Shown in pieces: positions 4,134-52,187 of a stretch of DNA of 64,000 nt. Every line of letters starts with the position of its first letter. Position 1 is the stretch's first letter. The notes under the pieces were generated by a model, which was given only the letters and a program-made list of their open reading frames with translations, made no database searches and was not told the origin of the DNA. Source of the DNA: Saccopteryx bilineata (taxonomy: Eukaryota > Chordata > Mammalia > Chiroptera > Emballonuridae); the NCBI RefSeq assembly GCF_036850765.1, contig NC_089491.1:180709520-180773519 (forward strand), in the 5' to 3' direction. A program made the translations under genes and the position numbers.

Positions 4134-6265
4134 CTGAGGGTGGTTTTGTTGATAGTATTAATGAGATTTAATAAAAAATAAAAAGTTAAAAAATAAAAAT
4201 CGAGAAAAGTTGTGTTTTTTTAATTAATAATGAAATAAAGAAAAATAAAATAAAATAAAAATTTTAAAAAAGGAAATTTTCCCCCCGTTTTTTTTCTCTC
4301 CTCTCCTCTCCCCTCTTTTTTGAGAAAATCTTTTGGTGAACTGTGAATTATATTGTATTTAATAAAACAAACAATGCCTCTAATGGAGGGCCTGAATTGG
4401 GGAAAAGTAATAAACAGGTAAGAAAAAAAATAATAAAAAAATAAAATAAAATAAAAAAGGGGTGTATGGACCCACAAAAAGCAAATAATGAAAAAATTTG
4501 AATCAAGATTGAAATGATTTGCATTTAGGTGTTTGTTAACTAAGAGTTATTATGAGAGGAGTAAGAGGGAAACAGGATAATGGGGGGACAAATTAAAAAA
4601 TTACTATTGTATTTAGTGGAACAAGAGCTTGATAAAATGAAGAGTCAGGGATGGGAGCACTGCTAGTGAGTTAAAAAGGTGAAGTAAAACCCCCCCAAAA
4701 TGCCACAAACATTAGTTTGAATCTCAGATAAAATAATTTGTTCGTTATTGAGGTTTGAATGAGAGGAGACGTAAAGGAGAAAGGAAGAAACTAATATAGA
4801 GGGAGAAAAGAAAGAGAAAGAGAGAGAGAGAAAAAAAGGCTACCACTAAAAGAAGAAAAAAGAAAAAGAGGAGAGAGAGAGAGAGAGAGAGTTAAGGATT
4901 TTGGAGTGCAACCCTCATAGAGAGAAAGGAAGAGGAAAGAAAAGATAATGGGAGATGTAACACTTATGGGTAGTGTAGTTCAAGGAGAGGAGAGAGTAAG
5001 ACCAGTAGAGAGTTAAATGACCAAATTGGAGGAGAAAAAAAAAATCAAGGATGAAGATAAGAGAAACAAGTGTGGTTCTCTCCCTGTTTCCCGGCTTTCG
5101 CCCTACCCTTGCAGGAGGAGCCCACTCATGGAACGGCTGCTATCCTTGGCTCTAACGGCCGGGCAGGATTGTGTGCCCATGCTCAGCTCAGTAGTGGAAC
5201 TTGCTTGTTCTGGGCTTTTGGCTCCACCCCTGTGGGAGGAGCTGACTCCCAAATCAGGCCACAAGCCTCGATTCCGGAGGCAGGGCAAGGCTGCGCTCCT
5301 GCCCCTTGCTCAAGGGCCTGTCTCCACCCCTTCCGGGGTTCCTGCCCTTCTCCCGCAGGCTGGATTACAGGTTGCCAGCAGCTGGTCTTGACTGCTTTTG
5401 CACACCTACTCCTCCCCAGCGGGGCAAGACTGAGCTCACACATGAGCCAAGTGGCAGCCAGCAGGCTTCCGCCCCTGCCAACAGAGCCATGCCTCCATAT
5501 CCCACCACCATCCACCCTCCGCCATGTGGGGTGTGAGAACTGCAGCTCAGACCCTAACACTCACTACTGTAGACCTGAAAGCTCCCTCCTTCTAAATGAC
5601 TCTGCTCTGAGTGCCGCGGGAGAGCATGTTTGGCTGGTGTCCTGCTTCCCTTTGCTGGTATTGCTGTTTCTGGGGGAAATATTCACTTCATATTTGGGGA
5701 GTGACTTGTCCCAGGGGTTAGGGTGGCTGTCTCCCAAAATGTTTCTCCCTGTACCTCCTAGATTACACTCTCTTACTGCTACTCTGGTCCTCTCCTCTCT
5801 CCTTATTCCCCGGAGCCCCAGGTGAGTGGTTGTGAAAGAGATTTTCTGCACAGTCCCTTTAAGAAGAATCCTGGGTCTGAGAAATCAGACTTTCTCACAA
5901 ACAGTATCCTGACTTGTTTCCAGCTAAATACTGTCCTATGCCTCTTCTAGGCTCTGGGGCTGCAGGCTGGGGCTTTGTTTCTGGGACTCAGGGCCCTCCC
6001 CTCTCTGTTAAACTCACTTCCCGCCATGCGAGTCTCTCTTGGCTGCTGTTCGCTCCATGGATCTGGGCAGCCCTCTCCACATTTCCACTTTTCCTACCAG
6101 TCTCGGTGTGGCTTCTTCAGTGTTCCTTGGTTGAAGAGTCCTCTTAGTTTAGTCCAAAGTTGGTTTTTCCAGATGATAGTTCTTGAAATTATTTTGTAAT
6201 CCACTTTGGTTCTGGGAGGTAGATGTTGGTATGTCTGCCTACTCCAGCACCATCTTGTCTTCTTA
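4134..6265 (-). promoter_or_regulatory. 5' UTR/promoter of L1 e1 (divergent type)
   Basis: The ORF1-proximal half (about 4134-5068) matches the 5' UTRs of e3, e5 and e6, including GA-rich tracts at 4800-4890. Upstream of about 5069 it changes to an unrelated GC-rich sequence that ends in 'aagatggtgctgg' at the 5' tip. That tip resembles a YY1-type start site, whereas e3/e5/e6 start with a CRE palindrome. Long GC-rich open frames in this stretch are composition artefacts. Promoter function is inferred from L1 biology. Confidence 0.75.
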
Positions 6266-7988: not shown

Positions 7989-10356
7989 GGACGTCACGGA
8001 AATGGCGCCGTGAGCAGCGCGTCCGACAGATCTCCCCAAAATCTCAACAAATTTATCAACTAGAATCAGAAAAATTTATCCTCGGAGCATTCCAGAGTTC
8101 CACACACACTGAAAGTGAAAGGACTGTTATCACTTGAATCTGAGAGACGGGTCACAGCTGATGGTGTGAAGGAAGCTAACTACCGCACGGACGTTCATTC
8201 AAGCTGAGGAAAGAGTACGCCTGTGGTGAGTCAACCCACGAGTGCAACTGCCCGCCCACACTCGGGGAGCGGCAGCCTGGGCCCTGGCAGCCGCCAGTGT
8301 GCCCTGAGAAACCGTGCGCGTGCCCTGTGCCACGGTCCGGTCGCAGAGCGAGCTCTCTTACACCACCAGCATCCCCAGCAGCCTGCGCACTGCGAGTGAG
8401 GGTCCCCAGCCACCGGTATGCCCTGAGAGACCGCACACGTGCCCCGTGCCACGGTCTGGGAGGGGCGCTAAGGCTGTCTTCCCCGTTCCGGAGATTCTCT
8501 CCGTGGGTGGGGCACCTCACCCAGCCATTCAAGCTAACAATCAAGCATTGGGGGAGGGGCGTGCAGGCAGCCTGAAATACTTTCTGGAGCACAGCTGCAG
8601 ATCCAATCACTGAAATTAGCTTAACCCATGAAATCTTCGCACCCACAAGGCTATAATTGATAGGATCTCTCTCAGTTCATCAATCCAAGACAAGAGGCGT
8701 GACATTTTTCAGTGCCTCTCACTAAAGGGGCGGGGGCAACTTCTGATAGAGAGAGCCTCCATATTCAGGGATATATGCTAACAAGAGGGACTTGGCAGAT
8801 ATTAAGATCTATATAGCAAGCAGCGACTAGTGCCTCTTCTTCCCAGCCAAAATAGGTTACAAAGTGTGGAAAGCCTGGGTCGAGTGGTCCAACTGAATGC
8901 TAGGCGCTGAACAGTCACCTTGACAACAATTGACTCCCAGCCCCACCTGATTACGCTGGAGGCTCTGACTGCCAGAGCCTTACCCAGAGCCTTGTGCTGA
9001 GTGGGGATAGAGTGGGGATTTCCCAGCTCTTTGAGCCTCTTACTCCCAGACAGAAGCAGTGGCAACCTCATAACTGGATCACCAGGCTGCTAATTCAGGA
9101 AGGGGAGACTAGGAGAGAGACTCCAGGAAAGCAAACTCTCTCATTGTTGGACCCTGCAAACGCCAACAAGCCTTGACTACCAGCAAGACTAAAGCCAATT
9201 ATATGACATTGCCATAGAATCCCATCAACTGCAAATCCCTACCTAAGTGTGACACAGGGGCAGAGCCTGGGGTACAGAGTCACCGACCAGGAAGAGGGAG
9301 AGAAAAGAAAAAGAAAGAAGTTAACCTCTCAAAATCAAGAAAAATCCACAGACTTTATAACTTGTTCCACTAATTCTTCGTTGTTGTTGTTTCTTTCTTC
9401 TATCTTATTGCCTTTATTATTATTTCTATTTCCTCCACCTCGGTCCTTTTATTCTCTGCCCACCTTATGCTTACCTTTTCTTGAACTACACTACCCATGA
9501 GTGTTACATTTTATTTCTTTTCTTCATCCTTACTCTCCTTTAGGGTTACACTCCAAAACCCTTAACTCTCACTCTCTCCCCTTTTGTCTTTTTTTTCTCT
9601 TCCTTTTTTTTCTTCCTTCGTTTCTCTCTTTTTCTTATTTTTTCCTTTCTATTCATTTCTTCTTTTCTCCTTTTACTTTTCCTCCCATTCAATCCTCAAT
9701 CATGAACAAATTATTTAATTTGGGACTCAAGATTATTTTGGTTTTATTTTTTTTCATTTTTTATTTTTTATAATTATTTTTTTTGCTTTTGTTTTTGCTT
9801 TTTCTTTGTTTGTTTGTTTTTGTGGCATTTTGGGTACTTTTTACATTGCTTTTTAACTCACTAGCATTCCTCCCAACGCAAGGTCTTTGTTGTAGTTAGT
9901 CTTTGCTCCACTTAATACAACAGATTTTTACTTATTTTTATTTTTTTCTTCTTTAATTATTATTATTTTTTCTCTCCTTTCTTCTGTTTCCCTCTTACCC
10001 CTCTCATTATATCTCTTAGTTGACCATCACTTACAAGCAAATAATTTTATGCTTGTCTAAGATTTCCTCTATTTTTTTTTTTGCATTTAGTAGGTCCCTA
10101 CTCCCTTTTTTGCCCCTTGAACTCTTCACCCCAAATCAGGCCCTCTGTTATAGGCAGTTTTTGTTGCATTTAGCATAATATAATTCACAGGTCATCACGA
10201 TATTTCCCTAAGGAGGGGAGAGGAGGGGAAGAGAAGAAAGAAAAAAGGGGGAAATAATAAATTATTACTGTTTTTTTTTTGTGGGGTGCTTTCCATTTTT
10301 TTTCCTTTTTATTCTTTATTAATTCTAATTAATACTATCAACAAGACCACCCTCAG
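7989..10356 (+). promoter_or_regulatory. 5' UTR/promoter of L1 e2
   Basis: The 5' tip reads 'ggacgtcacggaaatggcgc', a one-base-degraded CRE (GGACGTCA) followed by a YY1-like 'aaatggcg'. A GC-rich block at 8220-8560 contains a duplicated unit of about 121 bp (copies starting near 8289 and 8410, both holding 'tgccctgaga' and 'gtgccacggt'). Downstream is a long pyrimidine-rich run to the ORF1 start. The duplicated unit differs from the ~241 bp monomers of e3/e5/e6. Confidence 0.75.
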
Positions 10357-11348
10357 ATGCCAATAAGAAAAAGGAAATCGAATATTATGGATACAAAAGA
10401 TAAAGAGGTAACACAAACAGATGTGGAAAAATCTATGGAGAAAAGATTTAATATATTGGAAGCCTTGGAGCCAAAGGAAAGAGAATTTAAAATAGAAATC
10501 TTAAAAATACTCAGAGATATACAAGAAAACACAGAAAGGCAATTTAGGGAGATCAGAAAACAACTCAACGATCAAAAAGAATATATTACCAAGGAAATTG
10601 AGACTATAAAAACAAATCAAACAGAAATGAAAAACTCAATTCACGAGCTGACAAAAGAGGTAACTAGCTTAGCTAACAGAACAGCCCAGATAGAAGATAG
10701 AATTAGTGAAATAGAAGACGGCAACTTGAGGCACAACAGAGAGAAGAAGAAAGAGACTCAAAAATAATAAACGAGAAAGCCCTAATGGAATTGTCTGACT
10801 CCATCAGAAAGAATAACATAAGAATAATAGGTATATCAGAGGGAAAAGAGAAAGAAAATGGAATGGAGAATATAATCAAACAAATAATAGATGAGAACTT
10901 CCCAAACCTGTGGAAAGAACTAAAGCCTCAAATTCAAGAAGCAAACAGAACTCCGAGTTTTCTTAACCCCAACAAACCCACTCCAAGGCACATCATAATG
11001 AAGATGACATAAACCCATGACAAAGAAAAAATTCTCAAGGCAGCCAGGGAAAAGAAGAGTACAACTTATAAATAAAGGCCTATTAGATTATCATCAGATT
11101 TCTCAGCAGAAACTCTACAAGCTAGAAGAGAGTGGACCCCAATATTTAAAGCCCTGAAAGAGAGGAACTTTCAGCCAAGAATACTATACCTATCAAAGCT
11201 ATCCTTCAAGTACGAAGGATATATAAAAACATTCACAAATATAGAAAAAATGAGGAAATTTATCATCAGAAAGCCCCCACTCCAGGAAATACTAAAGGGG
11301 GTTTTCCAACCAGATTCAAAGAACAAAAGAAAACAAAACCACAAGTAA
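10357..11348 (+). pseudogene. L1 ORF1 (e2), disrupted
   Basis: The start at 10357 opens MPIRKRKSNIMDTKDKEVTQ. The coiled-coil region is open to 10767, with a frameshift near 10720-10740 ('gacggcaac' against 'gacaagcaac' in the intact copy). The RRM part reopens at 10785-11012 and stops at a CAA-to-TAA change. A further in-frame TAA lies near 11072. The C-terminal domain sequence continues to the original stop at 11346-11348. Product (RNA-binding chaperone) is clear from alignment with the intact copy at 20830. Confidence 0.93.
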
Positions 11349-11441
11349 CAGCTCCACCAAGAAAAGAATAAAACCAAACAAACTGTGACAACAAAAGAAA
11401 AAAAGGGGGGAAAGGATGAAGATTAACAGTAGCAAAGGACG

Positions 11442-11681
11442 ATAAAGTGCAGAAATACTCATAAGATAGGGTACTACAATGAATATGGTAGGTACCCTTT
11501 TCATTACTTAATGGTAACCACCCTTGAAAAAACCACCACAAAAACACTTGACTTAAAAAAGGTAGCAACAGAGGAAAGAAATATGGAATACGAACAAACA
11601 AAAACAAATGATAGAAAAACAAAAGAGAAGAATCAAACAAGATACAAAACTAAGAGAAAGCAATTTATAAAATGGCAATAG
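11442..11681 (+). pseudogene. Spacer frame of L1 e2 (start codon lost)
   Basis: The 240-nt frame equivalent to 21922-22161 is present without a stop or indel, but its ATG is changed to ATA. Most of the roughly 35 differences from the e3 copy alter amino acids, so protein-level constraint is not evident. It ends in TAG overlapping the ORF2 start at 11672. Confidence 0.4.
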
Positions 11682-14600
11682 GGAACCCACAAGTGTCAAT
11701 AATTACACTAAATGTAAATGGATTAAACTTACCAATAAAAAGACACAGAGTAGCAGAATGGATTAAGAAACAAAATCCAGCTGTATGCTGCCTACAAGAA
11801 ACACATCTAAGCAACAAGGATAAAAACAAATTCAAAGTGAAAGGCTGGAAAACAATACTTTAAGCAAACAACACCCCAAAAAAAGCAGGTGTAGCAATAC
11901 TCATATCTAATAATGCTGACTACAAAACAGAAAAAGTACTCAGAGACAAAAATGACCATTTCATAATGATTAAGGGGACACTGAATCAAGAAGACATAAC
12001 AATTCTTAATATATATGCACCAAACCAAGGAGCACCAAAATATATAAGACAGCTACTTATTGACCTTAAAACAAAAACTAACAAAAATACAATCATACTT
12101 GGAGACCTCAATACACCGCTGACGACTCTAGATCGGTCATCCAAACAGAGAATCAACAAAGACATAGTGGCCTTAAACGAAATACTAGAACACCTGGATA
12201 TGATAGACATCTACAGGACACTTCATCTCAAAGCGACAGAATATACATTTTTCTCTAGTGTACATGGATCATTCTCAAGAATTGACCATATGTTGGGCCA
12301 CAAAGACAATATCAGCAAATTTAGAAAAATTGAAATTGTACCAAGCATATTCTCTGATCATAAAGCCTTGAAACTAGAATTCAACTGTAAAAAAGAGGGG
12401 GAAAACCCCACAAAATTGTGGAAACTAAACAACATACTTCTAAAAAATGAAAGGGTCAAAGAAGAAATAAGCGCAGAAATCAAAAGATATATACAGACAA
12501 ATAAAAATGACAATACGACATATCAGAATCTCTGAAATGCAGCAAAAGCAGTAATAAGAGGAAATTTCATATTACTTCAGGCCTATATGAACAAACAAGA
12601 GAGCCGAAGTAAACCACTTTACTTCACACCTTAAGGAACTAGAAAAAGAAGAACAAAGCCGACCCACAACCAGCTGAAGAAAGGAGATAATAAAAATCAG
12701 AGCAGAAATAAACAAAATAGAGAACAGAAAAACCATAGAAAAAATCAATAAAACAAGGAGCTGGTTCTTTGAAAAGATCAACAAAATTGACAAACCCTTG
12801 GCAAGACTCACCAAGGAAAAAAGGCACAGGACTCAAATAAATATAATCCAAAATGAAAGAGGAGAGATCACCACAGACATCATAGATATACAAAGCATTA
12901 TTGTAAAATACTATGAAAAATTATATGCCACAAAATACAACAATCTAGAAGAAATGGATAAATTCCTAGAACAATACAACCTTCCTAGACTGAGTCATGA
13001 GGAAGCAGAAAGCCTAAACAGACCAATCAGCAGGGAGGAAATAGAAAAAATTATTAAAAACCTCCCCAAAAATAAAAGTCCAGGCCCAGACAGTTATACT
13101 AGTGAATTCTATCAAACATTCAAAGAAGACTTGGTTCCTATTCTACTCAAAGTCTTCCAAAAAATTGAAGAAGAAGCAATACTTCAAAACACATTTTATG
13201 AGGCGAACATAACCCTCATACCAAAACTTGGCAAGGATGGCACAAAGAAAGAAAACTACAGACCAATATCTCTAATGAATACAGATGCTAAAATACTAAA
13301 CAAAATACTGACAAATCGAATACAACAACATATTAAAAAAATAATACATCATGATCAAGTGGGATTCATCCCAGAATCTCAAGGATGGTTCAACATACAT
13401 AAAACGGTTAACGTAATACACCATATGAACAAAATAAAGAACAAAAACCACATGATCTTATCAATAGATGCAGAAAAGGCTTTTGATAAAATACAACACA
13501 ATTTTATGTTTAAGACTCTCAACAAAATGAGTACAGAAGGAAAATATCTCAACATGATAAAGGCCATATATGATAAACCATCAGCCAACTTCATATTAAA
13601 TGGCATAAAACTGAGGACTTTCCACCTTAAATCAGGAGCAAGACAGGGTTGTCCACTCACTCCACTGTTATTTAACGTGGTGCTAGAAGTTCTGGCCAGA
13701 GCAATCAGAAAAGACAAAGAAATAAAAGGCATCGATATCGGAAAAGAAGAAGTAAAGGTATCACTTTTTGCTGATGATATGATCCTATACATCGAAAACC
13801 CGAAGGACTCCACAAAAAGATTACTAGAAACAATAAACCAATACAGTAAGGTCGCAGGATACAAAATTAACATACAAAAGTCCATAGCCTTTTTATATGC
13901 CAACAATGAAATATTAGAAAACGAACTGAAAAAAAATAATCCCCTTCACGATTGCAACAAAAAAAATAAAATACCTAGGAATAAACATAACAAAGAATGT
14001 AAAGGACCTATATAACGAAAACTACAAGGCATTGTTAAGAGAAATAGAAAAAATACACAATGAGATGGAAAAATATTCCTTGTTCTTGGATAGGAAAAAT
14101 AAATATAATTAAAATGGCCATATTACCCAAAGCAATATATAAATTTAATGCAATTCCCATCAAAATTCCTATGACATTTTTTAAAGAAATGGAACAAAAA
14201 ATCACCAGATTTATATGGAACTATTAAAAACTTCGAATTGCCAAAGTAATCCTAAGGAAAAAGAATGAAGCTGGGGGCATTACAATATCTGACTTTAAAC
14301 TATATTATAGGGCCACGATAATCAAAACATCATGGTATTGGCAGAAAAATAGACACTCAGACCAATGGAACAGAATAGAAAGCCCAGAAATAAAACCATA
14401 TATATATGGTCAAATAATCTTTGATAAAGGGGCCAACAACACACAATGGAGAAAAGAAAGCCTCTTCAACAAATGGTATTGGGAAAACTGGAAAGCCACA
14501 TGCAATAGAATGAAACTCAACTACAGCCTGTCCCCGTGTACTAAAATTCATTCAAAATGGATCAAAGACCTAAATATAAGATCTGAAACAATAAAATACA

Positions 14601-15504
14601 TAGAAGAAGACATAGGTACAAAACTCATGGACCTGTGTTTTAAGGAACATTTTATAAACCTGACTCCAATGGCAAGAGAAGTGAAGGCAAAGATAAATGA
14701 ATGGGACTACATCAGAATGAAAAGTTTTTGCTCATCAAGAGAAACTGATAACAAAATAAACAGACCGCCAACTAAATGGGAAATGATATTTTCAAACAAC
14801 AGCTCAGATAAGGGCCTAATATCCAAAATTTACAAAGAACTCATAAAACTCAACAACAAACAAACAAACAATCCAATAAAAAAATGGCAAGAGGACATGA
14901 ATAGACACTTCTCCCAGGAAGAAATACAAATGGCCAACAGATATATGAAAAGATGCTCATCTTCATTAGTTATTAGAGAAATGCAAATCAAAACTACAAT
15001 GAGATACCACCTCACCCTTGTTAGATTAGCTATTATCAACAAGACGGGTAATAGCAAATGTTGGAGTGGCTGCGGAGAAAAGGGAACTCTCATCCACTGT
15101 TGGTGGAACTGTAAAGTAGTACAACCATTATGGAGGAAAGTATGGTGGTTCCTCAAAAAACTGCAAATAGAACTACCTTATGACCCCACAATCCCTCTAC
15201 TGGGTATGTCCCCAAATGTTACGTATCAGAAACATTGATATGTAAAGACACATGTAGCCCCACATTCATTGCAGCACTGTTCACAGTGGCCTAGACATGG
15301 AAACAACCAAAAAGCCTTTCAATAGAAGACTGGATAAAGAAGATGTGGCACATATACACTATGGAATACTACTCAGCCATAAGAAATGATGACATCAGAT
15401 CATTTACAGCAAAATGGTGGGATGTTGATAACAATATATGGAGTGAAATAAGTAAATCAGAAAAAAACAAGAACTACATGATTCCATAAATTGGTGGAAC
15501 ATAA
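11672..15504 (+). pseudogene. L1 ORF2 (e2), disrupted
   Basis: The start reads [19 protein letters not shown]. Stops occur at codon 64 (CAA to TAA) and codon 288 (TGG to TGA, 12533-12535). Several frame breaks follow: near 12600, near 13930 after the reverse transcriptase FADD motif, and near 14040-14240. Open pieces carry endonuclease (11966-12535), reverse transcriptase (12798-14015) and the C-terminal region (14510-15238) with the cysteine motif. It cannot make a working ORF2 protein. Confidence 0.95.
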
Positions 15505-15775
15505 AAACGAGACTAAGAGACATGGACAAGTGTGTGGTGGTTACCAGGGGTGGGGGGAGGGAGGATGCAGGAGGGAGGGAGGGAGAGAGTTAGGTGGAGG
15601 GGGAGGGGCACAGAGAAAACTAGATAGAGGGTGATGGAGGACAATCTCAATCTGGGCGAGGGGTATGCAACATAATTTAATGACAAGATAACCTAGACAT
15701 GTTTTCTTTGAATATATGTACCCTGATTTATTAATGTCATCCCCTTAACATTAATCAAAATTTATTAAAAAAAAG

Positions 15776-18385: not shown

Positions 18386-18399
18386 AAAAATGTTTTTTA
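18386..18399. repeat. Target-site duplication, left copy (L1 e3)
   Basis: 'aaaaatgtttttta' recurs at 26250-26263 after the A tail (the leading A's merge with the tail). On the bottom strand the nick reads TTTTT/ATG, matching the L1 endonuclease preference TTTT/A. Confidence 0.88.
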
Positions 18400-18402
18400 G
18401 GA

Positions 18403-18410
18403 TGACGTCA
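18403..18410. promoter_or_regulatory. CRE palindrome TGACGTCA at L1 e3 5' end
   Basis: A perfect CREB/ATF-type site lies 3 bases inside the element. Identical octamers occupy the same place in e5 (44493-44500) and e6 (52168-52175). Confidence 0.7.
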
Positions 18411-18840
18411 GAGTAATGGCGGAGTAGGAAGCGATACCGATAAATCTCCCCCAAAACTCAACAAGATCTTCAACCAGAAACAGAAAAACCTATACTTGGA
18501 GCTTCCAGATTCTTCGCAATACACCCAAAGGTATGATTGAGTGAAAAATTGGCTAAATATATAACCAAACCCCGAAGGAAATAGGGAGTAAGAAATGCTC
18601 CGCCTTCCTCACTAACCTAAACAGGGCGGCTTTCTCTGGTAACTGTGAATATAGAAACTGAGGCGGGCAAAGGGGGTGAATAGATCCAGGCCGCCGCAGC
18701 AAAAACGGCCGAACCAGGCTGTGGCTCAGAGATCCAAGCCGAGGAAAATCTGATCCTGTGGCAACCCGGGCAATACAAGCTAACACTCGCGCCAAACCCA
18801 AACAAAGAAAGACAAGCGGAGCGGCCATTTTACCCGGTCT

Positions 18841-19430
18841 CCTGGTCGGTGCGCAGTTAGTGGAAGAGAGATTTCTTCCTAAGCCGCGGAAGTGGGTGCC
18901 CGTGTTGCCCCACGGAGAGGCAGGGTCAGAGGCCTTTCTGTGGGCTGAGGGCAGAGTCTCTGGGCAGCCCCAGCGCCCTGGGAAAGCCACGCACGGGAGG
19001 GAGTGAGAACTACTTCCAACGGTGGAGATTTTCCGTGCTGGTGAGGGTTTTACTCAGAGGGAACCGCGGCCGGCCTCATATCCTGGTGTGCGCGCGCAGA
19101 TAAGGAGTGAGCGATTCCTCCGAGTGCCTCGGCAGTGCGCGCCCGTGTTATCGCACAGAGGGGCAGAGTCAGGGGCCTTTGTGTGGGCCAAAGCGGAATC
19201 TCGGGCCGCCCCAGCGCCTTGCAAAAGCCGCACACGGGGACGGAGCGAGACTCAATTCCAACGCTGCAACTTTTCCCTGCGGTTGGGGGTTTCACTCAGA
19301 GCGTGAGACTGCTGGCCGGATATCCTGGTTGCAGACAGTGAGTGAGAGTTTCCTCCAAGCGCCCCGGAAGTAGGCGCCCGCTTGTGTTACCGGACAGAGT
19401 GGCAGAGCCAGTGGTCTTTGAGTGGGCGGA
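18841..19430 (+). repeat. Tandem ~241 bp 5' UTR monomers (L1 e3)
   Basis: Unit starts 'cctggt' fall at 18841, 19082 and 19324, spaced 241 and 242 bp. Each unit carries a 'gtgcccgtgtt'-like phrase, a 'gcagagtca' phrase and a 'cagccccagcgcc'-like phrase. There are two full units and a partial third. Confidence 0.8.
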
Positions 19431-20829
19431 AAGCCCACCTGATTATGCTAGCAGCTCTGACTGACTGAGCCTTACCCAGAGCCCTGTGCTGAGTGGAAAT
19501 AGAGTGGGGAGTTGCCAGCAATTTGAGCCTCTTACTATCCAGGCAGAGGCAGCAGCAACCCCATACCTGGACTATCAGGCTACTAATTGAGGAAGGAAAG
19601 ACTAGGAGAAAGGCTCCAGGAACACGGACTCTCTCACTGTCGGAGCCTATAAATGCTAATGAGCCTCAACTCCCAACGAGAATAAAGCATAATACATGAC
19701 ATTGCCATAGAGACTTATCAACTGCAAACCTCTACCTGAGCGTACCAAAGGGGCAGAACCCGGGGTACAGAGTCACCGACCAGGAAGAGGGAGAGAAAAG
19801 AAAAAGCAAGAAGATAACCTCTCAAAATCAAGAATAATCTGCAGACTTTATAACCTATCCCATTTTATTATATTTGTTCGTTTGTTTCTCTTATCTTCAT
19901 TCTTGAGACTTTTTTTTCCTCCTCCAATTTGGCCGATTAACTCTCTACCGGTCTTACTCTCTCCTCTCCTTGAACTACACTACCCATAAGTGGTACATCT
20001 CCCATTATCATTTCTCTTCTCTTCCTTTCTCTCTATGAGGGTTGCACTCCAAAACCCTTAACCCTTTCTCTCTCTCTCCTTTCTTTTTTCTTCTTTTAGT
20101 GGTTCCCTCTTTTTTTCTCTCTCTCTCTTTCTTTTCTCCCTCTATATTAGTTTCTTCCTTTCTCCTTTACATCTCCTCTCATTCAAACCTCAATAACAAA
20201 CAAATTATCTTATCTGGGACTCAAACCTATGTTTGTGGCATTTTGGGGGGTTTTTACTTCACCTTTTTAACTCACTAGCGGTGCTCCCATCCTTGGCTCT
20301 CCATATTATCTAGTTCTTGTTCCACTAAATACAATAGTAAGTTTTTAATTTGTCCCCCCATTTTTCCATTTTCCTCTTATTCCTCTCATCATAACTCTTA
20401 GAAAACCAACACCTAAAAGCAAATCATTTTATTCTTGACCCAAATTTTTTCCTTATTTCCTTTTTGTGGGTCCATACGCTCTTTTTTTTTTCTTTTCCTT
20501 TTTTTTTTTTTTTTTTTTTTTCTTTCTCTCTTTTTTGCCCCTTTATTACTTTTCCCCAATTCAGGCCCTCCATCACAGGCATTGTTTGTTATAACTCACA
20601 GTCCACCACAAGATTTTCTCAAGAAAGAGGGGAGAGGAGAGGAGAGGAAAAAAAGAGGGGGGGAATAATTTCCTTTTTTAAAAATTTTTATTTTATTTTA
20701 TTTTTCTTTATTTCATTATTAATTTTTTTTAAAAAAAACAACTCTTTTCGATTTGTTATTTTTTTATTTTTTTTTAACTTTTTATTCTTTATTAAATCTC
20801 ATTTATACTATCAACAAAACCACCCTCAG

Positions 20830-21825
20830 ATGCCATTAAGGAAGAGAAAATCGAATATCATGGATACAAAAGAAAGAGAGGTAACACAGCTAGATGAGGA
20901 AAAATCTATGGAGAAAAAATTTAATATATTGGAAACCTTGGAGCTAAATGACAGAGAATTCAAGATAGAAATCCTAAAAATCCTCCGAGATATACAAGAA
21001 AACACAGAAAGGCAATATAGGGAGCTCAGAAAACAACTCCATGAACACAAAGAATATATGTCCAAGGAAATTGAAAGTATAAAAACAAATCAAACAGAGA
21101 TGAAAAACTCAATTAACGAGCTGAAAAACGAAGTAACAAGCTTAGCTAATAGAACAGGTCAGATAAAAGAGAGGATTAGTGAAATAGAAGACAAGCAACT
21201 TGAGGCACAACAGAGAGAAGAAGAAAGAGACTCAAAAATTAAAAAAAATGAGATAGCCCTACAAGAATTATCTGACTCCATCAAAAAGAATAACATAAGA
21301 ATAATAGGTATATCAGAGGGAGAAGAGAGAGAAAATGGAATGGAGAACATACTTAAACAAATAATTGATGAGAACTTCCCAAGCCTGTGGAAAGAACTAA
21401 AGCCTCAAGTTCAAGAAGCAAACAGAACTCCAAGTTTTCTTAACCCCAACAAACCTACTCCAAGGCATATCATAATGAAATTGACACAAACCAACAGCAA
21501 AGAAAAAATTCTCAAGGCAGCCAGGGAAAAGAAGAATACAACATATAAAGGAAGGCCCATTAGATTATCATCAGATTTCTCAGCAGAAACTCTACAAGCT
21601 AGAAGAGAGTGGACCCCAATATTTAAAGTCCTGAAAGAGAGGAACTTTCAGCCACGAATACTATACCCATCAAAGCTATCCTTCAAATACGAAGGAGAAA
21701 TAAAAACATTCACAGATACAGAAAAGATGAGGGAATTTATCATCAGAAAACCCCCACTCCAGGAATTACTAAAGGGGGTTCTCCAATCAGATACAAAGAA
21801 CAAAAAAAAACAGAGCCACAAGTAA
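20830..21825 (+). CDS. L1 ORF1 protein, RNA-binding chaperone (331 aa), intact
   Basis: The protein binds L1 RNA as a trimer and forms the cytoplasmic L1 ribonucleoprotein. The start MPLRKRKSNIMDTK at 20830 is chosen because it aligns with the start in e1, e2, e5 and e6, although the frame is open for 122 codons further upstream through T-rich 5' UTR. A heptad-rich coiled coil spans about residues 22-153. The RRM begins at N155 (NIRIIGISEGE). The C-terminal domain begins near R242 (RPIRLSSDFSAETLQARREW). Length is close to human ORF1p (338 aa). It ends in TAA; ORF2 follows after 326 nt, a much longer spacer than in human L1. Confidence 0.96.
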   Translation: MPLRKRKSNIMDTKEREVTQLDEEKSMEKKFNILETLELNDREFKIEILKILRDIQENTERQYRELRKQLHEHKEYMSKEIESIKTNQTEMKNSINELKNEVTSLANRTGQIKERISEIEDKQLEAQQREEERDSKIKKNEIALQELSDSIKKNNIRIIGISEGEERENGMENILKQIIDENFPSLWKELKPQVQEANRTPSFLNPNKPTPRHIIMKLTQTNSKEKILKAAREKKNTTYKGRPIRLSSDFSAETLQARREWTPIFKVLKERNFQPRILYPSKLSFKYEGEIKTFTDTEKMREFIIRKPPLQELLKGVLQSDTKNKKKQSHK

Positions 21826-21921
21826 AAGCTCCAAGAAGAACACAATAAAACCAAATTTAAACTGTGACAACAACAAAAAGAAAGAGGGGGAGAAGACGGA
21901 GATTAACAGTAGCAAAGGACG

Positions 21922-22161
21922 ATGGAGTGCAAAAGTACTCACAAAATAGTTCGCTACAATGAACAGGGTAGGGACCCTTTTCATTACTCAAAGGTAACCA
22001 CCATTGAAAAAACCACCACAGAAGCACATGAGATAAAAAAGATAGCAACAGAGGAAAGATGTATGGAATACAACCAAATAAAAACAAAAGATAGAAAAAC
22101 GAAAGAGAAGGATCAAACAAGACACAAAACTAACATAAAGCAAGATATAAAATGGCAATAG
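21922..22161 (+). CDS. Spacer frame of L1 e3 (79 aa), unknown, overlaps ORF2 start
   Basis: This frame lies in the long ORF1-ORF2 spacer. Its ATG has A at -3 and G at +4. It ends with TAG at 22159-22161, 10 nt into ORF2, whose ATG is at 22152. Such an overlap would allow termination-reinitiation onto ORF2. The peptide starts [10 protein letters not shown], is basic and hydrophilic, has no membrane segment or motif I know, and ends KQDIKWQ. Equal-length frames occur in e1, e5 (before its SINE), e6 and, without an ATG, e2. Substitutions between copies are mostly nonsynonymous, so it may be noncoding spacer. Confidence 0.4.
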
Positions 22162-25100
22162 GGAACTCACAAGTATCAATAATTACACTAAATGTAAATG
22201 GATTAAACTCACCAATAAAAAGGCACAGAGTAGCAGAATGGATTAAAAAAGAAAATCCAACTGTATGCTGCCTACAGGAAACTCATCTAAGTAACAAGGA
22301 TAAAAACAAATTCAAAGTGAAAGGCTGGAAAACAATAATCCAAGCAAATAACATCCAAAAAAAAGCGGGTGTAGCAATACTCATATCGGATAATGCTGAC
22401 TACAAGACAGGAAAAGTACTTAGAGACAAAAATGGCCATTTCATAATGGCTAAGGGGACACTGAATCAAGAAGACATAACAATTCTTAATATATATGCAC
22501 CAAACCAAGGAGCACCAAAATATATAAGACAGCTACTTATTGATCTTAAAACAAAAACTGACAAAAATACAATCATACTTGGAGACCTCAATACACCGCT
22601 GACGGTTCTAGATCGGTCATCCAAACAGAGAATCAACAAAGACATAGTGGCCTTAAACAAAACACTAGAGCACCTGGATATGATAGACATCTACAGGACA
22701 TTTCATCCCAAAGTGACTGAGTATACATTTTTCTCCAGTGTACATGGATCATTCTCAAGAATTGACCATATGTTGGGCCACAAAAACAATATCAGCAAAT
22801 TCAGAAAAATTGAAGTTGTACCAAGCATATTTTCTGATCATAAAGCCTTGAAACTAGAATTCAACTGCAAAAAAGAGGAAAAAAATCCCACAAAAATGTG
22901 GAAACTAAACAACATACTTTTAAAAAATGAATGGGTCAAAGAAGAAATAAGTGCAGAGATCAAAAGATATATACAGACTAATGAAAATGACAATACGACA
23001 TATCAGAATCTATGGGATGCAGCAAAAGCAGTGATAAGAGGGAAGTTCATATCACTTCAGGCATATATGAACAAACAAGAGAGAGCCCAAGTGAACCACT
23101 TAACTTCCCACCTTAAGGAACTAGAAAAAGAAGAACAAAGACAACCCAAAACCAGCCGAAGAAAGGAGATAATAAAAATCAGAGCAGAAATAAATGAATT
23201 AGAGAACAGAAAAACTATAGAAAAAATTAATAGAACAAGGAGCTGGTTCTTTGAAAAGATCAACAAAATTGACAAACCCTTGGCAAGACTTACCAAGGAA
23301 AAAAGAGAAAGAACTCATATAAACAAAATCCAAAATGAAAGAGGAGAAATCACCACGGACACCGTAGCTATACAAAGAATTATTGTAGAATACTATGAAA
23401 AACTTTATGCCACTAAATTCAACAACCTAGAAGAAATGGATAAATTCCTAGAACAATACAACCTTCCTAGACTGAGTCAAGAAGAAGCAGAAAGCCTAAA
23501 CAGACCTATCAGTAGAGAAGAAATAGAAAAAACCATTAAAAACCTCCCCAAAAATAAAAGTCCAGGCCCTGACGGCTATACCAGCGAATTTTATCAAACA
23601 TTCAAAGAAGACTTGGTTCCTATTCTACTCAAAGTCTTCCAAAAAATTGAAGAAGAAGCAATACTTCCAAACACATTTTATGAGGCCAACATAACCCTCA
23701 TACCAAAACCAGGCAAGGATGGCACAAAAAAAGAAAACTACAGACCAATATCTCTAATGAATACAGATGCTAAAATACTAAACAAAATACTAGCAAATCG
23801 AATACAACAACATATTAAAAAAATAATACATCATGATCAAGTGGGATTCATCCCAGAATCTCAAGGATGGTTCAACATACGTAAAACGGTTAATGTAATA
23901 CACCATATCAACAAAACAAAGAACAAAAACCACATGATCTTATCAATAGACGCAGAAAAGGCTTTCGATAAAATACAACACAATTTTATGTTTAAGACTC
24001 TCAACAAAATGGGTATAGAAGGAAAATATCTCAACATGATAAAGGCCATATATGATAAACCATCAGCTAACATCATATTAAATGGCACTAAACTGAAGGC
24101 TTTCCCCCTTAAATCAGGAACAAGACAGGGTTGTCCACTCTCTCCACTCTTATTTAATGTGGTACTAGAGGTTCTAGCCAGAGCAATCAGACAAGACAAA
24201 GAAATAAAAGGCATCCATATCGGAAAAGAAGAAGTAAAGGTATCACTTTTTGCAGATGATATGATCCTATACATCGAAAACCCCAAAGAATCCACAAAAA
24301 GACTACTAGAAACAATAAGCCAATACAGTAAGGTCGCAGGATACAAAATTAACATACAGAAGTCAATAGCCTTTCTATATGCCAACAATGAAACAACTGA
24401 GAAGGAACTCAAAAGAATAATCCCCTTCACGATTGCAACAAAAAAAATAAAATACTTAGGAATAAACATAACAAAGAATGTAAAGGACTTATATAATGAA
24501 AACTATAAACCATTGTTAAGGGAAATCGAAAAAGATATAATGAGATGGAAGAATATACCTTGTTCTTGGCTAGGAAGAATAAATATAATCAAGATGGCTA
24601 TATTACCCAAAGCAATATACAAATTTAATGCAATTCCCATCAAAATTCCAATGACATTTTTTAAAGAAATAGAGCAAAAAATCATCAGATTTATATGGAA
24701 CTATAAAAAACCCCGAATAGCCAAAGCAATCCTAAAGAAAAAGAATGAAGCTGGGGGCATAACAATACCTGACTTCAAACTCTATTATAGGGCCACGACA
24801 ATCAAAACAGCATGGTATTGGCAGAAAAATAGACACTCAGACCAATGGAACAGAATAGAAAGTCCAGAAATAAAACCACATATATATAGTCAAATAATTT
24901 TTGATAAAGGGGCCAACAACACACAATGGAGAAAAGAAAGCCTCTTCAATAAATGGTGCTGGGAAAACTGGAAAGCCACATGCAAAAGAATGAAACTGGA
25001 CTACAGTCTCTCCCCCTGTACAAAAATTAACTCAAAATGGATCAAAGATCTAAACATAAGACCTGAAACAATTAAGTACATAGAAGAAGACATAGGTACT

Positions 25101-25979
25101 CAACTCATGGACCTGGGTTTTAAAGAGCATTTTATGAATTTGACTCCAATGGCAAGAGAAATGAAGGCAAAAATTAATGAATGGGACTACATCAGACTAA
25201 GAAGTTTTTGCTCAGCAAGGGAAACTGATAACAAAATAAACAGAAAGCCAACTAAATGGGAAATGATATTTTCAAACAACAGCTCAGATAAGGGCCTAAT
25301 ATCCAAAATATACAAAGAACTCATAAAACTCAACAACAAACAAACAAACAATCCAATAAAAAAATGGGAAGAGGATATGAATAGACACTTCTCCCAGGAA
25401 GAAATACAAATGGCCAACAGATATATGAAAAGATGCTCATCTTCTTTAGCTATTAGAGAAATGCAAATCAAAACGGCAATGAGATACCACCTCACACCTG
25501 TTCGATTAGCTGTTATTAGCAAGTCAGGTAATAGCAAATGTTGGAGAGGCTGTGGAGAAAAAGGAACCCTCATACACTGTTGGTGGGAATGTAAAGTAGT
25601 ACAACCATTATGGAAGAAAGTATGGTGGTTCCTCAAAAAACTGAAAATAGAACTACCTTATGACCCAGCAATCCCTCTACTGGGTATATATCCCCAAAAC
25701 TCAGAAACATTGATACGTAAAGACACATGCAGCCCCATGTTTATTGCAGCATTGTTCACAGTGGCCAGGACATGGAAACAACCAAAAAGCCTATCAATAG
25801 ATGACTGGATAAAGAAGATGTGGCACATATACACTATGGAATACTACTCAGCCATAAGAAATGATGACTTCGGAACATTTACAGCAAAATGGTGGGATCT
25901 TGATAACATGATACGAAGCGAAATAAGTAAATCAGAAAAAAACAGGAACTGTATTATTCCATACGTAGGTGGGACATAA
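22152..25979 (+). CDS. L1 ORF2 protein, endonuclease/reverse transcriptase (1275 aa), intact
   Basis: The enzyme nicks genomic DNA and reverse-transcribes L1 (and SINE) RNA at the nick. The apurinic-type endonuclease domain (about residues 1-240) keeps N14, E43, D145, N147, D205, D229 and H230. The reverse transcriptase domain carries FADD at 700-703 and upstream motifs such as [13 protein letters not shown] and [12 protein letters not shown]. The C-terminal CX3CX7HX4C motif starts at C1130. Length equals human ORF2p (1275 aa). The start [19 protein letters not shown] is shared by all copies here. No stop or frameshift is present, unlike every other ORF2 in the window. Confidence 0.97.
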
Positions 25980-26208
25980 TAGTGAAACTAAGAGACATTG
26001 ATAAGAGTGTGGTGGTTACGGGGGGGAGGGGGGAATGGGAGAGGGATAGGGGGTGGGAGGGGCACAAAGAAAACAAGATAGAAGGTGACAGAGGATAATC
26101 TGACTTTGGGTGGTGGGTATGCAACATAATTGAACGACAAGATAACCTGGACTTGTTATCTTTGAATATATGTATCCTGATTTATTGATGTCACCCCATT
26201 AAAAAAAT

Positions 26209-26216
<8 letters not shown>

Positions 26217-26254
<38 letters not shown>
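26217..26254 (+). repeat. Poly(A) tail of L1 e3 (38 A's)
   Basis: An uninterrupted run of 38 A's follows an AATAAA at 26206-26211. Long pure tails shorten and gain interruptions with age, so this supports recent insertion. Confidence 0.9.
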
Positions 26255-26256
<2 letters not shown>

Positions 26257-26263
26257 TTTTTTA
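26250..26263. repeat. Target-site duplication, right copy (L1 e3)
   Basis: Copy of 18386-18399; hAT sequence resumes after it. Confidence 0.85.
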
Positions 26264-32569: not shown

Positions 32570-33390
32570 AAATATAAAATTATCAAGGAAATGCATATCA
32601 AAATCACAATGAGATACCACTTCATACCAATCAGAAAGGCTGTTATCAAAAAATCAACAAATATCATGACAAGGATGTGTAGAAAATAAAACCCCCATGC
32701 ACTGTGGTAGGACTGCAAACAGTTGCAACCCCTGTGGAAAAAAGTATGGAGATTCTTCAAAAAACCTAAATATATATATATACTAATTGACACAGCAATT
32801 CCACTTCTGGGTATATATTCAAAGAAAACAAGAACATTAATTAAAAAAAATCATGCACTCTTATGTTCATTGCAGCATAATTTATAATAGCCAAGATATG
32901 GAGCAACCTGGATGTCCATCAATAGATGAATGGATAAAGAAGATGTGATACACACACACACACACACACTAGAATCTTAAGCAGCAATAAAAAAAGAATG
33001 ACATCTTGCCATTTGAGACATGTGTGGATCTAGAGGTTATTAGGATAAGTGAACTAAAGCAGAGAAAGACAAATATCTTATCGTTTCACTTATGTATGGA
33101 ATCCAAAAACAAAACAAAATAAACAAACATAAAACAAGACTCATAGAAAACGAAAGCAAAGGATGGTTACCAGAAGGGAGAGGGTGGAAGATAGGTGCAA
33201 ATGGTAAGGAAAATTTAGTCAATAATATTTAGTAAGTTTACATGGTGATAAATGATTACTAGAATTAGTGGAGTGATCAGATCATAAGTTATAAAAATGT
33301 CTAATCACTATTTTGTACACATGAATTTAATACAACTAATATAAGATTGTATACCAACTTACTTAAATAAAAAAATAAATTAAAAAATGC
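32570..33390 (+). mobile_element. Old 5'-truncated L1
   Basis: ORF2 C-terminal sequence ('aaatgcatatcaaaatcaca', 'gagataccac') leads through 'gatgtccatcaatagatgaa' into a 3' UTR and an A-rich end near 33385. Many substitutions and indels mark it as older than e1-e6. A (CA)n run sits at 32951-32969. Confidence 0.85.
32951..32969. repeat. (CA)n microsatellite
   Basis: About nine CA units inside the old L1. Confidence 0.9.
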
Positions 33391-35800: not shown

Positions 35801-35814
35801 AGTGTTGCTGTTTC
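35801..35814. repeat. Target-site duplication, left copy (L1 e6)
   Basis: 'agtgttgctgtttc' matches 'agtgttgctatttc' at 52188-52201 with one mismatch. Confidence 0.85.
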
Positions 35815-36074
35815 TTTTTTTTTTTTTTTTAACATATATTTTTTATTGTATTTATTTTTAATAAGGTGAAATCAGTAAATCAAGATACATATATTCAAAG
35901 ATAACATGTCCAGGTTATCTTAAAGTTCAATTATGTTGCATACCCATCACCCAAAGTCAGATTGTCCTGTCACCCTCTATCTAGTTCTCTTTGTACCCCC
36001 CTCCCCCTTCCCTCTCCCTCTCCCCCCTACCCCCATAACCACCACACTCTTATCAATGTCTCTTGGTCTCACTT

Positions 36075-36270
36075 TTATGTCCCATCTACGTATGGAAAAA
36101 TGCAGTTCCTGTTTTTTTCTGATTTACTTATTTCACTCCGTATAATGTTGTCAAGATCTAACCATTTTGCTATAAATGATCCAATGTCATCATTTCTTAT
36201 GGCTGAGTAGTATTCCATAGTGTATATGTGCCACATCTTCTTTATCCAGTCATCTATTGATGGGCTTTTT
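36075..36270 (-). pseudogene. L1 ORF2 (e6), C-terminal part
   Basis: The last 65 codons of e6 ORF2, ending with TAA at 36075-36077, were cut off from the rest (44518-48141) by the e5 insertion. Codes for the region matching [13 protein letters not shown] in the intact copy. Confidence 0.85.
36258..36270. repeat. Target-site duplication, left copy (L1 e5)
   Basis: 'tgatgggcttttt' recurs exactly at 44505-44517 and is itself part of L1 e6 ORF2. Confidence 0.9.
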
Positions 36271-36527
36271 TTTTTTTTAATTTTGTAAATAATTTTATTT
36301 TTTTAATGGGGTGACATCAATAAATCAGGATACATATATTCAAAGATAACAAGTCCAGGGTATCTTGTCGTTCAATTATGATGCATACCCATCACCCAAA
36401 GTCAGATTGTCCTCTGTCACCTTCTATCTTGTTTTCTTTGTGCCCCTCCCCCTCCCCCTTTCCCTCTCCTATTCCCCCCTCCCCCCCGTAAACACCACAC
36501 TCTTATCAATGTCTCTTAGTTCCACTT

Positions 36528-39500
36528 TTATGTCGCACCTACGTATGGAATAATGCAGTTCCTAGTTTTTTCTGATTCACTTATTTCGCTTCGTATCATG
36601 TTATCAAGATCCCACCATTTTGCTGTAAATGTTCCGATGTCATCATTTCTTATGGCTGAGTAGTATTCCATAGTGTATATGTGCCACATCTTCTTTATCC
36701 AGTCATCTATTGACGGGCTTTTTGGTTGTTTCCATGTCCTGGCCACTGTGAACAATGCTGCAATAAACATGGGGCTGCATGTGTCTTTACGTATCAATGT
36801 TTCTGAGTTTTGAGGGTATATACCCAGTAGAGGGATTGCTGGGTCATAAGGTAGTTCTATTTTCAGTTTTTTGAGGAACCACCATACTTTCTTCCATAAT
36901 GGTTGTACTACTTTACATTCCCACCAACAGTGTATGAGGGTTCCTTTTTCTCCACAGCCTCTCCAACATTTGCTATTACCTGTCTTGCTAATAATAGCTA
37001 ATCGAACAGGTGTGAGGTGGTATCTCATTGCTGTTTTGATTTGCATTTCTCTAATAGCTAAAGAAGATGAGCATCTTTTCATATATCTGTTGGCCATTTG
37101 TATTTCTTCCTGGGAGAAGTGTCTGTTCATATCCTCTTCCCATTTTTTTATGGGATTGTTTGTTTGTTTGTTGTTGAGTTTTATGAGTTCTTTGTATATT
37201 TTGGATATTAGGCCCTTATCTGAGCTGTTGTTTGAAAATATCATTTCCCATTTAGTTGGCTTTCTGTTTATTTTGTTATCAGTTTCTATTGCTGAGCAAA
37301 AACTTCTTAGTCTGATGTAGTCCCATTCATTAATTTTTGCCTTCACTTCTCTTGCCATTGGAGTCAAATTCATAAAATGCTCTTTAAAACCCAGGTCCAT
37401 GAGTTGAGTACCTATGTCTTCTTCTATGTACTTAATTGTTTCAGGTCTTATGTTTAGATCTTTGATCCATTTTGAGTTAATTTTTGTACAGGGGGAGAGA
37501 CTGTAGTCCAGTTTCATTCTTTTGCATGTGGCTTTCCAGTTTTCCCAGCACCATTTATTGAAGAGGCTTTCTTTTCTCCATTGTGTGTTGTTGGCCCCTT
37601 TATCAAAAATTATTTGACTATATATATGTGGTTTTATTTCTGGACTTTCTATTCTGTTCCATTGGTCTGAGTGTCTATTTTTCTGCCAATACCATGCTGT
37701 TTTGATTGTCGTGGCCCTATAATAGAGTTTGAAGTCAGGTATTGTAATGCCCCCAGCTTCATTCTTTTTCTTTAGGATTGCTTTGGCTATTCGGGGTTTT
37801 TTATAGTTCCATATAAATCTGATGATTTTTTGCTCTATTTCTTTAAAAAATGTCATTGGAAGTTTGATGGGAATTGCATTGAATTTGTATATTGCTTTGA
37901 GTAATATAGCCATCTTGATTATATTTATTCTTCCTAGCCAAGAACAAGGTATATTCTTCCATCTCATTATATCTTTTTCAATTTCCCTTAAAAATGGTTT
38001 ATAGTTTTCATTATATAAGTCCTTTACATTCTTTGTTATGTTTATTCCTAAGTATTTTATTTTTTTTGTTGCAATCGTGAAGGGGATTATTCTTTTGAGT
38101 TCGTTCTCAATTGTTTCATTGTTGGCATATAGAAAGGCTATTGACTTCTGTATGTTAATTTTGTATCCTGCAACCTTACTGTATTGGCTTATTGTTTCTA
38201 GTAGTCTTTTTGTGGATTCTTTGGGGTTTTTGATGTATAGGATCATATCATCTGCAAAAAGTGATACCTTTACTTCTTCTTTTCCGATATGGATGCCTTT
38301 TATTTCTTTGTCTTGTCTGATTGCTGTGGCGAGAACCTCTAGTACCACATTAAATAAGAGTGGAGAGAGTGGACAACCCTGTCTTCTTCCTGATTTAAGG
38401 GGGAAAGCCTTCAGTTTAGTGCCATTTAATATGATGTTAGCTGATGGTTTATCATATATGGCCTTTATTATGTTGAGATATTTTCCTTCTATACCCATTT
38501 TGTTAAGAGTCTTAAACATAAAATTGTGTTGTATTTTATCAAAAGACTTTTCTGCGTCTATTGATAAGATCATGTGGTTTTTGTTCTTTGTTTTGTTGAT
38601 ATGGTGTATTACATTAACCGTTTTACGTATGTTGAAACATCCTTGAGATTCAGGGATGAATCCCACTTGATCATGATGTATTATTTTTTTAATATGTTGT
38701 TGTATTCGATTTGATAGTATTTTGTTTAGTATTTTAGCATCTGTATTCATTAGAGATATTGGTCTGTAGTTTTCTTTTTTTGTGTCATCCTTGCCTGGTT
38801 TTGGTATGAGTGTTATGTTGGCCTCATAAAATGTGTTTTGAAGTATTGCTTCTTCTTCAATTTTTTGGAAGACTTTGAGTAGAATAGGAACCAAGTCTTC
38901 TTTGAATGTTTGATAAAATTCGCTGGTATAGCCGTCAGGGCCTGGACTTTTATTTTTGGGGAGGTTTTTAATGGTGTTTTCTATTTCTACTCTACTGATA
39001 GGTCTGTTTAGGCTTTCTGCTTCTTCTTGACTCAGTCTAGGAAGGTTGTATTTTTCTAGGAATTTATCCATTTCTTCTAGGTTGTTGAATTTCGTGGCAT
39101 AAAGTTTTTCATAGTATTCTACAATAATTCTTTGTATATCTACGGTGTCCGTGGTGATTTCTCCTCTTTCATTTTGGATTTTGTTTATATGAGTTCTTTC
39201 TCTTTTTTCCTTGGTAAGTCTTGCCAAGGGTTTGTCAATTTTGTTGATCTTTTCAAAGAACCAGCTCCTTGTTCTATTAATTTTTTCTATAGTTTTTCTG
39301 TTCTCTAATTCATTTATTTCTGCTCTGATTTTTATTATCTCCTTTCTCCGGCTGGTTTTGGGTTGTCTTTGTTCTTCTTTTTCTAGTTCCTTAAGGTGGG
39401 AAGTTAAGTGGTTCACTTGGCTCTCTCTTGTTTGTTCATATATGCCTGAAGTGATATGAACTTCCCTCTTATCACTGCTTTTGCTGCATCCCATAGATTC

Positions 39501-40354: not shown

Positions 40355-40485
40355 TTTATATCTTGCTTTCTGTTAGTTTTGTGTCTTGTTTGATCCTTCT
40401 CTTTCGTTTTTCTATCTTTTGTTTTTATTTGGTTGTATTCCATACATCTTTCCTCTGTTGCTATCTTTTTTATCTCATGTGCTTC

Positions 40486-40500
40486 TGTGGTGGTTTTTTC
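40486..40500. repeat. Target-site duplication, left copy (nested SINE)
   Basis: 'tgtggtggttttttc' recurs exactly at 40903-40917. Confidence 0.95.
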
Positions 40501-40902: not shown

Positions 40903-40917
40903 TGTGGTGGTTTTTTC
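40903..40917. repeat. Target-site duplication, right copy (nested SINE)
   Basis: Exact copy of 40486-40500. Confidence 0.95.
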
Positions 40918-40973
40918 AATGGTGGTTACCTTTGAGTAATGAAAAGGGTCCCTACCGTGTTCATTGCAGCAAA

Positions 40974-44500: not shown

Positions 44501-44504
44501 TCTC

Positions 44505-52175: not shown

Positions 52176-52187
52176 TCCCCTCTAACC

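What the first reader, a model, noticed from the sequence alone, without database searches (positions are those of the whole stretch)
18400..26254. Full-length L1 with both ORFs open: candidate active retrotransposon
ORF1 (331 aa) and ORF2 (1275 aa) have no stop or frameshift. Endonuclease residues N14, E43, D145, N147, D205, D229 and H230, RT FADD 700-703 and the C-terminal cysteine motif are present. A 38-base pure A tail, AATAAA and a 14 bp duplication indicate a recent insertion. All other L1s here are broken.
Basis: partly seen in the sequence, partly recalled or inferred. Interest (0 to 1): 0.75.

Follow-up and report, generated by a model that had tools for sequence, protein, structure and literature searches.

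The report
Young full-length bat LINE-1 copy
This is a recent, structurally intact copy of an ordinary LINE-1 jumping gene in what looks like a bat genome, one of many nearly identical copies, with no sign that this copy has itself produced offspring.

Summary
Window 18400-26254 is a full-length LINE-1 with ORF1 (331 aa) and ORF2 (1275 aa) open, catalytic and Cys-motif residues present, a polyadenylation signal, an A tail and a perfect 14-bp target-site duplication. The other L1 copies found in the window are broken or fragments. The window's own genome (2.61 Gb) gives context. At least 39 other copies match 201 bp of its 3'UTR exactly (40 of 1102 candidates scored). Of 24 of these fetched, 10 are full length and differ from it by 0.31-0.86%; 1 of those 10 also has both ORFs open. 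They form a near-star tree, so the family expanded recently and may still be active. This copy is a young leaf with 14 private substitutions in 7816 sites. Two are missense at residues constant in the relatives aligned (ORF1p 113, ORF2p 1214). Only this copy matches its own segment around its 3'-most private base perfectly; the 39 next-best score one mismatch lower, so no offspring are detectable. 'Candidate active' fits the family and is unproven for this copy. New member of a well-known kind. Side observations: promoter turnover behind a conserved start; an A run giving ORF1 three alternative ends.

The parts
18386..18399 (+). target-site duplication, upstream copy (AAAAATGTTTTTTA)
   Evidence: 14/14 match to 26250-26263
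18400..20829 (+). 5'UTR / presumed internal promoter, 2430 bp; first 1.44 kb GC-rich with 68 CpG (o/e 0.65)
   Evidence: promoter function inferred
18403..18410 (+). TGACGTCA, CRE-like octamer (name recalled) at +4; ATGGCGG (YY1-like core, recalled) follows at 18416-18422
   Evidence: 3 in window, all at L1 5' ends, against 0.14 expected, 0 of 100 shuffles reach 3; whole octamer in 7 of 9 other full-length copies inspected, L019 keeps GACGTCA, L017 lacks it
18851..19427 (+). about 2.4 tandem units of ~243 bp, 73-83% alike, inside the 5'UTR
20830..21825 (+). ORF1, 331 aa (RRM-like and C-terminal domains; coiled coil)
21802..21810 (+). A9 run in the last codons of ORF1, length-variable between copies (331, 339 or 373 aa ends)
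21826..22151 (+). spacer between ORF1 and ORF2, 326 bp
22152..25979 (+). ORF2, 1275 aa: endonuclease, reverse transcriptase, C-terminal Cys motif
24249..24260 (+). RT FADD motif, residues 700-703
25539..25592 (+). C-x3-C-x7-H-x4-C motif, residues 1130-1147
   Evidence: translation; aligned with solved human ORF2p
25980..26216 (+). 3'UTR with G-rich tract (26020-26045) and AATAAA (26206-26211)
26217..26254 (+). A tail, 38 A (33-38 after allowing for overlap with the duplication)
26250..26263 (+). target-site duplication, downstream copy

Best explanation
This is a recent full-length insertion of a currently or very recently expanding LINE-1 family, made by target-primed reverse transcription: an internal-promoter transcript, ORF1p and ORF2p bound to it, an endonuclease nick at a T-rich site, reverse transcription from the A tail, and a 14-bp duplication on joining. 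It is one terminal leaf among many near-identical copies. Shown here: intact anatomy, duplication, youth of copy and family, and no progeny seen that carry its 3'-most private change. Inferred: the insertion mechanism, from known L1 biology. Whether this copy is transcribed or mobile is open; my estimate that it is retrotransposition-competent is about one in three.
For: Both ORFs open with conserved residues. PDB match to human L1 ORF2p over residues 4-1274 and to ORF1p. Perfect 14-bp duplication and long A tail. 40 of 40 listed genome matches to 201 bp of its 3'UTR are identical, itself included (1102 candidates, 40 scored). Of 24 fetched, 10 are full length at 24-67 substitutions from it. 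Near-star tree. 14 private substitutions in 7816 sites, with 5 nonsynonymous to 1 synonymous in its ORFs, as expected after insertion. By contrast its differences polarised against D are 16 nonsynonymous to 13 synonymous against a neutral ratio of about 2.8:1, one-sided p 0.026, so the parent lineage was under constraint; D's own are 36 (one a stop) to 27, p 0.004.
Against: Private missense changes at ORF1p 113 (one residue in 16 of 16 relatives aligned) and ORF2p 1214 (13 of 13) may weaken or kill it. Its own 201-bp segment around 25792 finds only itself as a perfect match; the 39 others listed score one mismatch lower (40 of 1474 candidates scored). Internal branches of the young cluster are weakly supported, 0.17-0.88. 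No transcript or allele data. The empty-site search did not complete.
Confidence: 0.88

Rival explanations
1. This copy is itself a hot source element: transcribed, competent and seeding new insertions.
For: Intact ORFs, CpG-bearing full 5'UTR with the conserved start, youth.
Against: The 39 other best matches to 25700-25900 all score one mismatch lower than this copy, most simply its 25792 base. All 14 private changes are absent from the 10-20 fetched copies covering each site. Two private missense changes fall at otherwise constant residues. Progeny made before those changes arose would not be recognised.
Confidence: 0.1
2. A dead-on-arrival or soon-dead copy: structurally complete but disabled by missense change or silencing.
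For: Private missense at ORF1p 113 in the coiled-coil region and ORF2p 1214; no progeny seen. PMC7449397 (abstract read) reports that single coiled-coil changes can abolish retrotransposition.
Against: The same abstract reports that the coiled coil also tolerates many substitutions. No frame or active-site lesion. Youth alone explains the lack of progeny.
Confidence: 0.45
3. The apparent intactness or the lesions of its relatives are assembly artefacts (homopolymer errors, collapsed repeats).
For: Several frame differences among copies lie in A runs.
Against: Ten full-length copies each have their own singletons in the ORFs, and the flanks printed for nine of them differ. Older window copies carry many lesions of their own. 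The window copy has no lesion to explain away.
Confidence: 0.05

Closest known systems
Human LINE-1 (ORF2p structures 8sxt, 8uw3, 9k6g; ORF1p structures 2yko, 2ykp)
   Same: Two-ORF layout, ORF2 of identical length (1275 aa) aligned without offset over 4-1274, active-site positions, Cys motif; A tail and target-site duplication (human side recalled).
   Different: 5'UTR 2.4 kb and spacer 326 bp, both longer than in human L1 as recalled; no nucleotide comparison with human L1 was made.
Rhinolophus L1 (P0068, Rhinolophus ferrumequinum; P0001 and P0002, unnamed)
   Same: P0001 and P0002 are the two best ORF1 matches of 120 listed (62-63% identity) and look nearly identical to P0068 (57% over 69% of the query, listed 68th) over the ORF1 part.
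   Different: Different N-terminus and C-terminal tail; not the same subfamily.
Equine/perissodactyl L1 families (PMC5872511)
   Same: Equus asinus is the best-scoring named ORF2 (71%); the single better one, P0121 (72%), is unnamed. Passages read report 5'UTRs of 305-2855 bp, two types with tandem repeats, and elements of 5.5-7.9 kb; another passage gives 328-476 bp and about 375 bp for what appears to be the ORF1-ORF2 spacer, the subject being cut off.
   Different: That paper's title and passages describe extinction of L1 in the horse; here the family looks freshly amplified.

Membership tests
LINE-1 (L1) clade of non-LTR retrotransposons | ORF1 with L1 RRM-like and C-terminal domains and a coiled coil | tested here: met
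   PF02994 E 2.6e-24, PF17490 E 3.2e-28; 2yko E 5.3e-66; ORF1 chain 6fia E 9.9e-5 over 54-149
LINE-1 (L1) clade of non-LTR retrotransposons | ORF2 with N-terminal APE-like endonuclease, RT with FADD, C-terminal Cys motif | tested here: met
LINE-1 (L1) clade of non-LTR retrotransposons | 3' A tail and target-site duplication | tested here: met
   38 A; 14/14-bp duplication
LINE-1 (L1) clade of non-LTR retrotransposons | Insertion at a T-rich endonuclease site (consensus TTTT/AA, recalled) | tested here: met
   bottom strand at the duplication edge reads TTTTT/AT, five of six consensus letters, given the longest duplication (read by eye from the flank printed)
Currently active L1 family | Many near-identical copies genome-wide | tested here: met
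   counts are lower bounds
Currently active L1 family | Insertions polymorphic between individuals | not testable with these tools
   one assembly; upstream-flank search for an empty allele did not complete, downstream flank neither
Active (source) L1 copy | Progeny carrying its private alleles | tested here: not met
   only itself matches 25700-25900 perfectly; 39 others listed one mismatch lower. Only this one private site was searched; the ORF1 site was asked for and not answered
Active (source) L1 copy | Transcription and retrotransposition | not testable with these tools
   no expression data or assay available

The most novel reading that the evidence does not exclude
An L1 lineage in a bat that is expanding now, keeps a short start (GACGTCA followed by ATGGC) while the rest of its 5'UTR turns over, and carries a slippery A run at the end of ORF1 that lets copies switch between three ORF1p C-termini without losing function.
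Probability: 0.2. Interest if true: 0.45.

Novelty: new member of a known kind. Interest (0 to 1): 0.22.

Why it matters
An L1 family with at least 40 copies identical over 201 bp of 3'UTR in one genome is good material for studying current L1 activity and host control, in a group (bats, by my inference) where intact LINE ORFs are reported for some species and not others (PMC10239488, passages read: found in Myotis myotis, M. lucifugus and Rhinolophus ferrumequinum, none in Molossus molossus, Rousettus aegyptiacus or Pteropus vampyrus). The single locus is ordinary.

Tried and rejected
Suspected that ORF1 was cut short by a frameshift, because neighbour D reads 373 aa. Rejected: A and B share this copy's frame there, and recent copies vary in that A run. 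Suspected that ORF2 residue 406 (Ala here, Glu in 15 of 15 relatives aligned) was a disabling private change. Rejected as private: the site is about evenly split in the family, 8 copies with this copy's base (itself included) and 7 with the other. In all, this copy departs from 25 of 455 ORF2 columns and 5 of 62 ORF1 columns that are at least 90% conserved in 16 relatives each, chosen from 120 listed; only ORF1 113 and ORF2 1214 are among its 14 private changes. A first age estimate using D as nearest relative was superseded by the closer copies. A scan of viral contigs for ORF1 matched 8 stretches, none confirmed. Paper searches returned nothing; those were read as listings, and from them I opened passages or the abstract of three papers only; one wanted paper is not held. 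Antisense ORFs of 175-270 aa over the RT region occur in A-E and were taken, untested, as a codon-composition by-product.

Full report
What is there. The window holds a full-length LINE-1 at 18400-26254 on the plus strand (here 'C'). ORF1 spans 20830-21825 and ORF2 22152-25979, both without internal stop or frameshift. Pfam recognises the L1 RRM-like and C-terminal domains in ORF1 and the endonuclease and RT in ORF2. In the PDB, ORF2 aligns with human L1 ORF2p over residues 4-1274 without offset, and ORF1 with human ORF1p. A perfect 14-bp duplication flanks the element, and the tail is 38 A, of which 5 may belong to the duplication.

Surroundings. L1 matches cover about 58% of the window, a slight underestimate because B's unalignable 5' part is not counted. 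Relatives of C are: A (1-5069, minus, cut by the window edge); B (full length, 7989-15775, duplication AAAGATATTTGA); D (36266-44502, minus), which carries a tRNA-derived SINE in its spacer (about 40500-40902, duplicated GAAAAAACCACCACAG) and is itself inserted into E (E occupies about 35811-36278 and 44497-52178; the duplication at D's ends is AAAAAGCCCATCA); F (53569-54661), a 5'-inverted fragment; and an old fragment at 32588-32959. A, B, D and E all have frame lesions. So the nested order E, then D, then the SINE is read directly from the sequence.

The family in its own genome. The genome that holds the window (2.61 Gb, 256 contigs) was searched with 201 bp of C's 3'UTR. All 40 matches listed, C among them, were identical; only 40 of 1102 candidates were scored, so this is a lower bound. 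I fetched 24 of the 39 other places (15 not fetched). They were picked for an identical 3'UTR, so they lean towards young copies. Ten of the 24 are full length (start within 11 bases of C's) and differ from C by 24-67 substitutions (0.31-0.86%); the other 14 matches begin inside the element. Of the ten, one (L012) has both ORFs open at 331 and 1275 aa; one more (L015) has ORF2 open but a stop in ORF1; the other eight all have a broken ORF2, and three of them a broken ORF1 too. The tree of the ten with C is close to a star, with terminal branches of about 0.1-0.5% and weak internal support (0.17-0.88); D, then A, then E, with B as the chosen root, sit on deeper branches. That fits the single-lineage succession known from other mammals (recalled), ending in a recent burst.

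C itself. Against these copies C has 14 private substitutions in 7816 sites (0.18%), none at CpG. With the 0.13% per million years used for perissodactyl L1 in PMC5872511 (passage read) this is at most about 1.4 million years; with 0.22% (recalled) about 0.8. Unsampled closer copies would lower it. Among C's private changes in the ORFs 5 are nonsynonymous and 1 synonymous; over all 11 copies they are 69 to 32, plus 5 stops, against about 2.8:1 expected without constraint. This fits decay after insertion. Two of C's private changes are missense at residues otherwise constant in the aligned relatives: ORF1p 113 (16 of 16) and ORF2p 1214 (13 of 13). Whether they matter is unknown. PMC7449397 (abstract only) reports both tolerance and single-change loss in the ORF1p coiled coil.

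No detectable progeny. A search with C's 25700-25900, which contains its 3'-most private base at 25792, returned C as the only perfect match; the 39 others listed score one mismatch lower (40 of 1474 candidates scored, best first). Because the 20 fetched copies covering 25792 all lack C's base, the mismatch is most simply that base. So no copy long enough to reach that site and made after that change is seen. Copies made earlier, or shorter than about 425 bp, would be missed. A like search on C's private ORF1 stretch did not complete.

Promoter and ORF1 end. The 5'UTR is 2430 bp with about 2.4 tandem units of 243 bp and a pyrimidine-rich second half. Long and tandem-bearing 5'UTRs are reported for equine L1, so this is not unusual. 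The octamer TGACGTCA lies at +4 in C and at the same place in D and E (3 in the window against 0.14 expected), and whole in 7 of 9 other full-length copies inspected. The start of B's 5'UTR resembles C's for roughly the first 60-70 bp by eye, but over 906 aligned bases it is 45% identical, near the shuffled control of at most 43%: promoter turnover behind a kept start, or very fast divergence. An A9 run in the last ORF1 codons varies in length; ORF1 ends at 331, 339 or 373 aa in different copies. Homopolymer assembly error could contribute.

Host. Not named. The two best-scoring ORF1 relatives (unnamed) look nearly identical to a Rhinolophus ferrumequinum protein, and the next three are from another bat, Cnephaeus nilssonii. 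The SINE looks like the type I recall from horseshoe-bat relatives; no paper found here confirms that. A bat is my inference. Against it, the best-scoring named full ORF2 is equine, perhaps for lack of bat entries.

Verdict. The finding is real and correctly described. As a claim about this locus, 'candidate active' is possible but unproven, and the copy is not special within its family. The family as a whole is young and probably still active.

Noticed in passing
21802-21810; also about 41100-41135 (D) and fetched copies L009-L032: A run at the end of ORF1 varies in length between copies (unchanged in 4, +1 in 4, +2 in 1, +3 in 1 of ten full-length copies), giving ORF1 ends of 331, 339 or 373 aa where the rest of ORF1 is open.
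   Followed up: partly
18400-18460, 44443-44503, 52119-52179, 7989-8050: All four full-length L1 5' ends in the window share a GACGTCA plus ATGGC start, although B's 5'UTR as a whole aligns with C's hardly better than the shuffled control.
   Followed up: partly
35811-52178: Nested insertions: L1 D sits inside L1 E, and a tRNA-derived SINE sits inside D, the last two with clear target-site duplications.
   Followed up: yes
ORF2 codon 64 in B and D; codons 288 and 336 in A and B; ORF1 codon 276 in A, E, L015 and L021: Broken copies share identical premature stops although the window ones differ by 8-9% overall in ORF2 for the pairs A-B and B-D; recurrent mutation (codons 276 and 336 contain a CpG), gene conversion or mobilisation in trans could explain it.
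   Followed up: no
1-64000: About 58% of the window is L1, most of it from related families.
   Followed up: partly
57734-58111, 58681-59054, 62838-62974: Further copies of the SINE found inside D (89%, 80% and 70% identical).
   Followed up: no
23861-24469 (minus) and equivalents in A, B, D, E: Long antisense ORFs over the RT region recur in all five copies; probably a by-product of codon composition.
   Followed up: no
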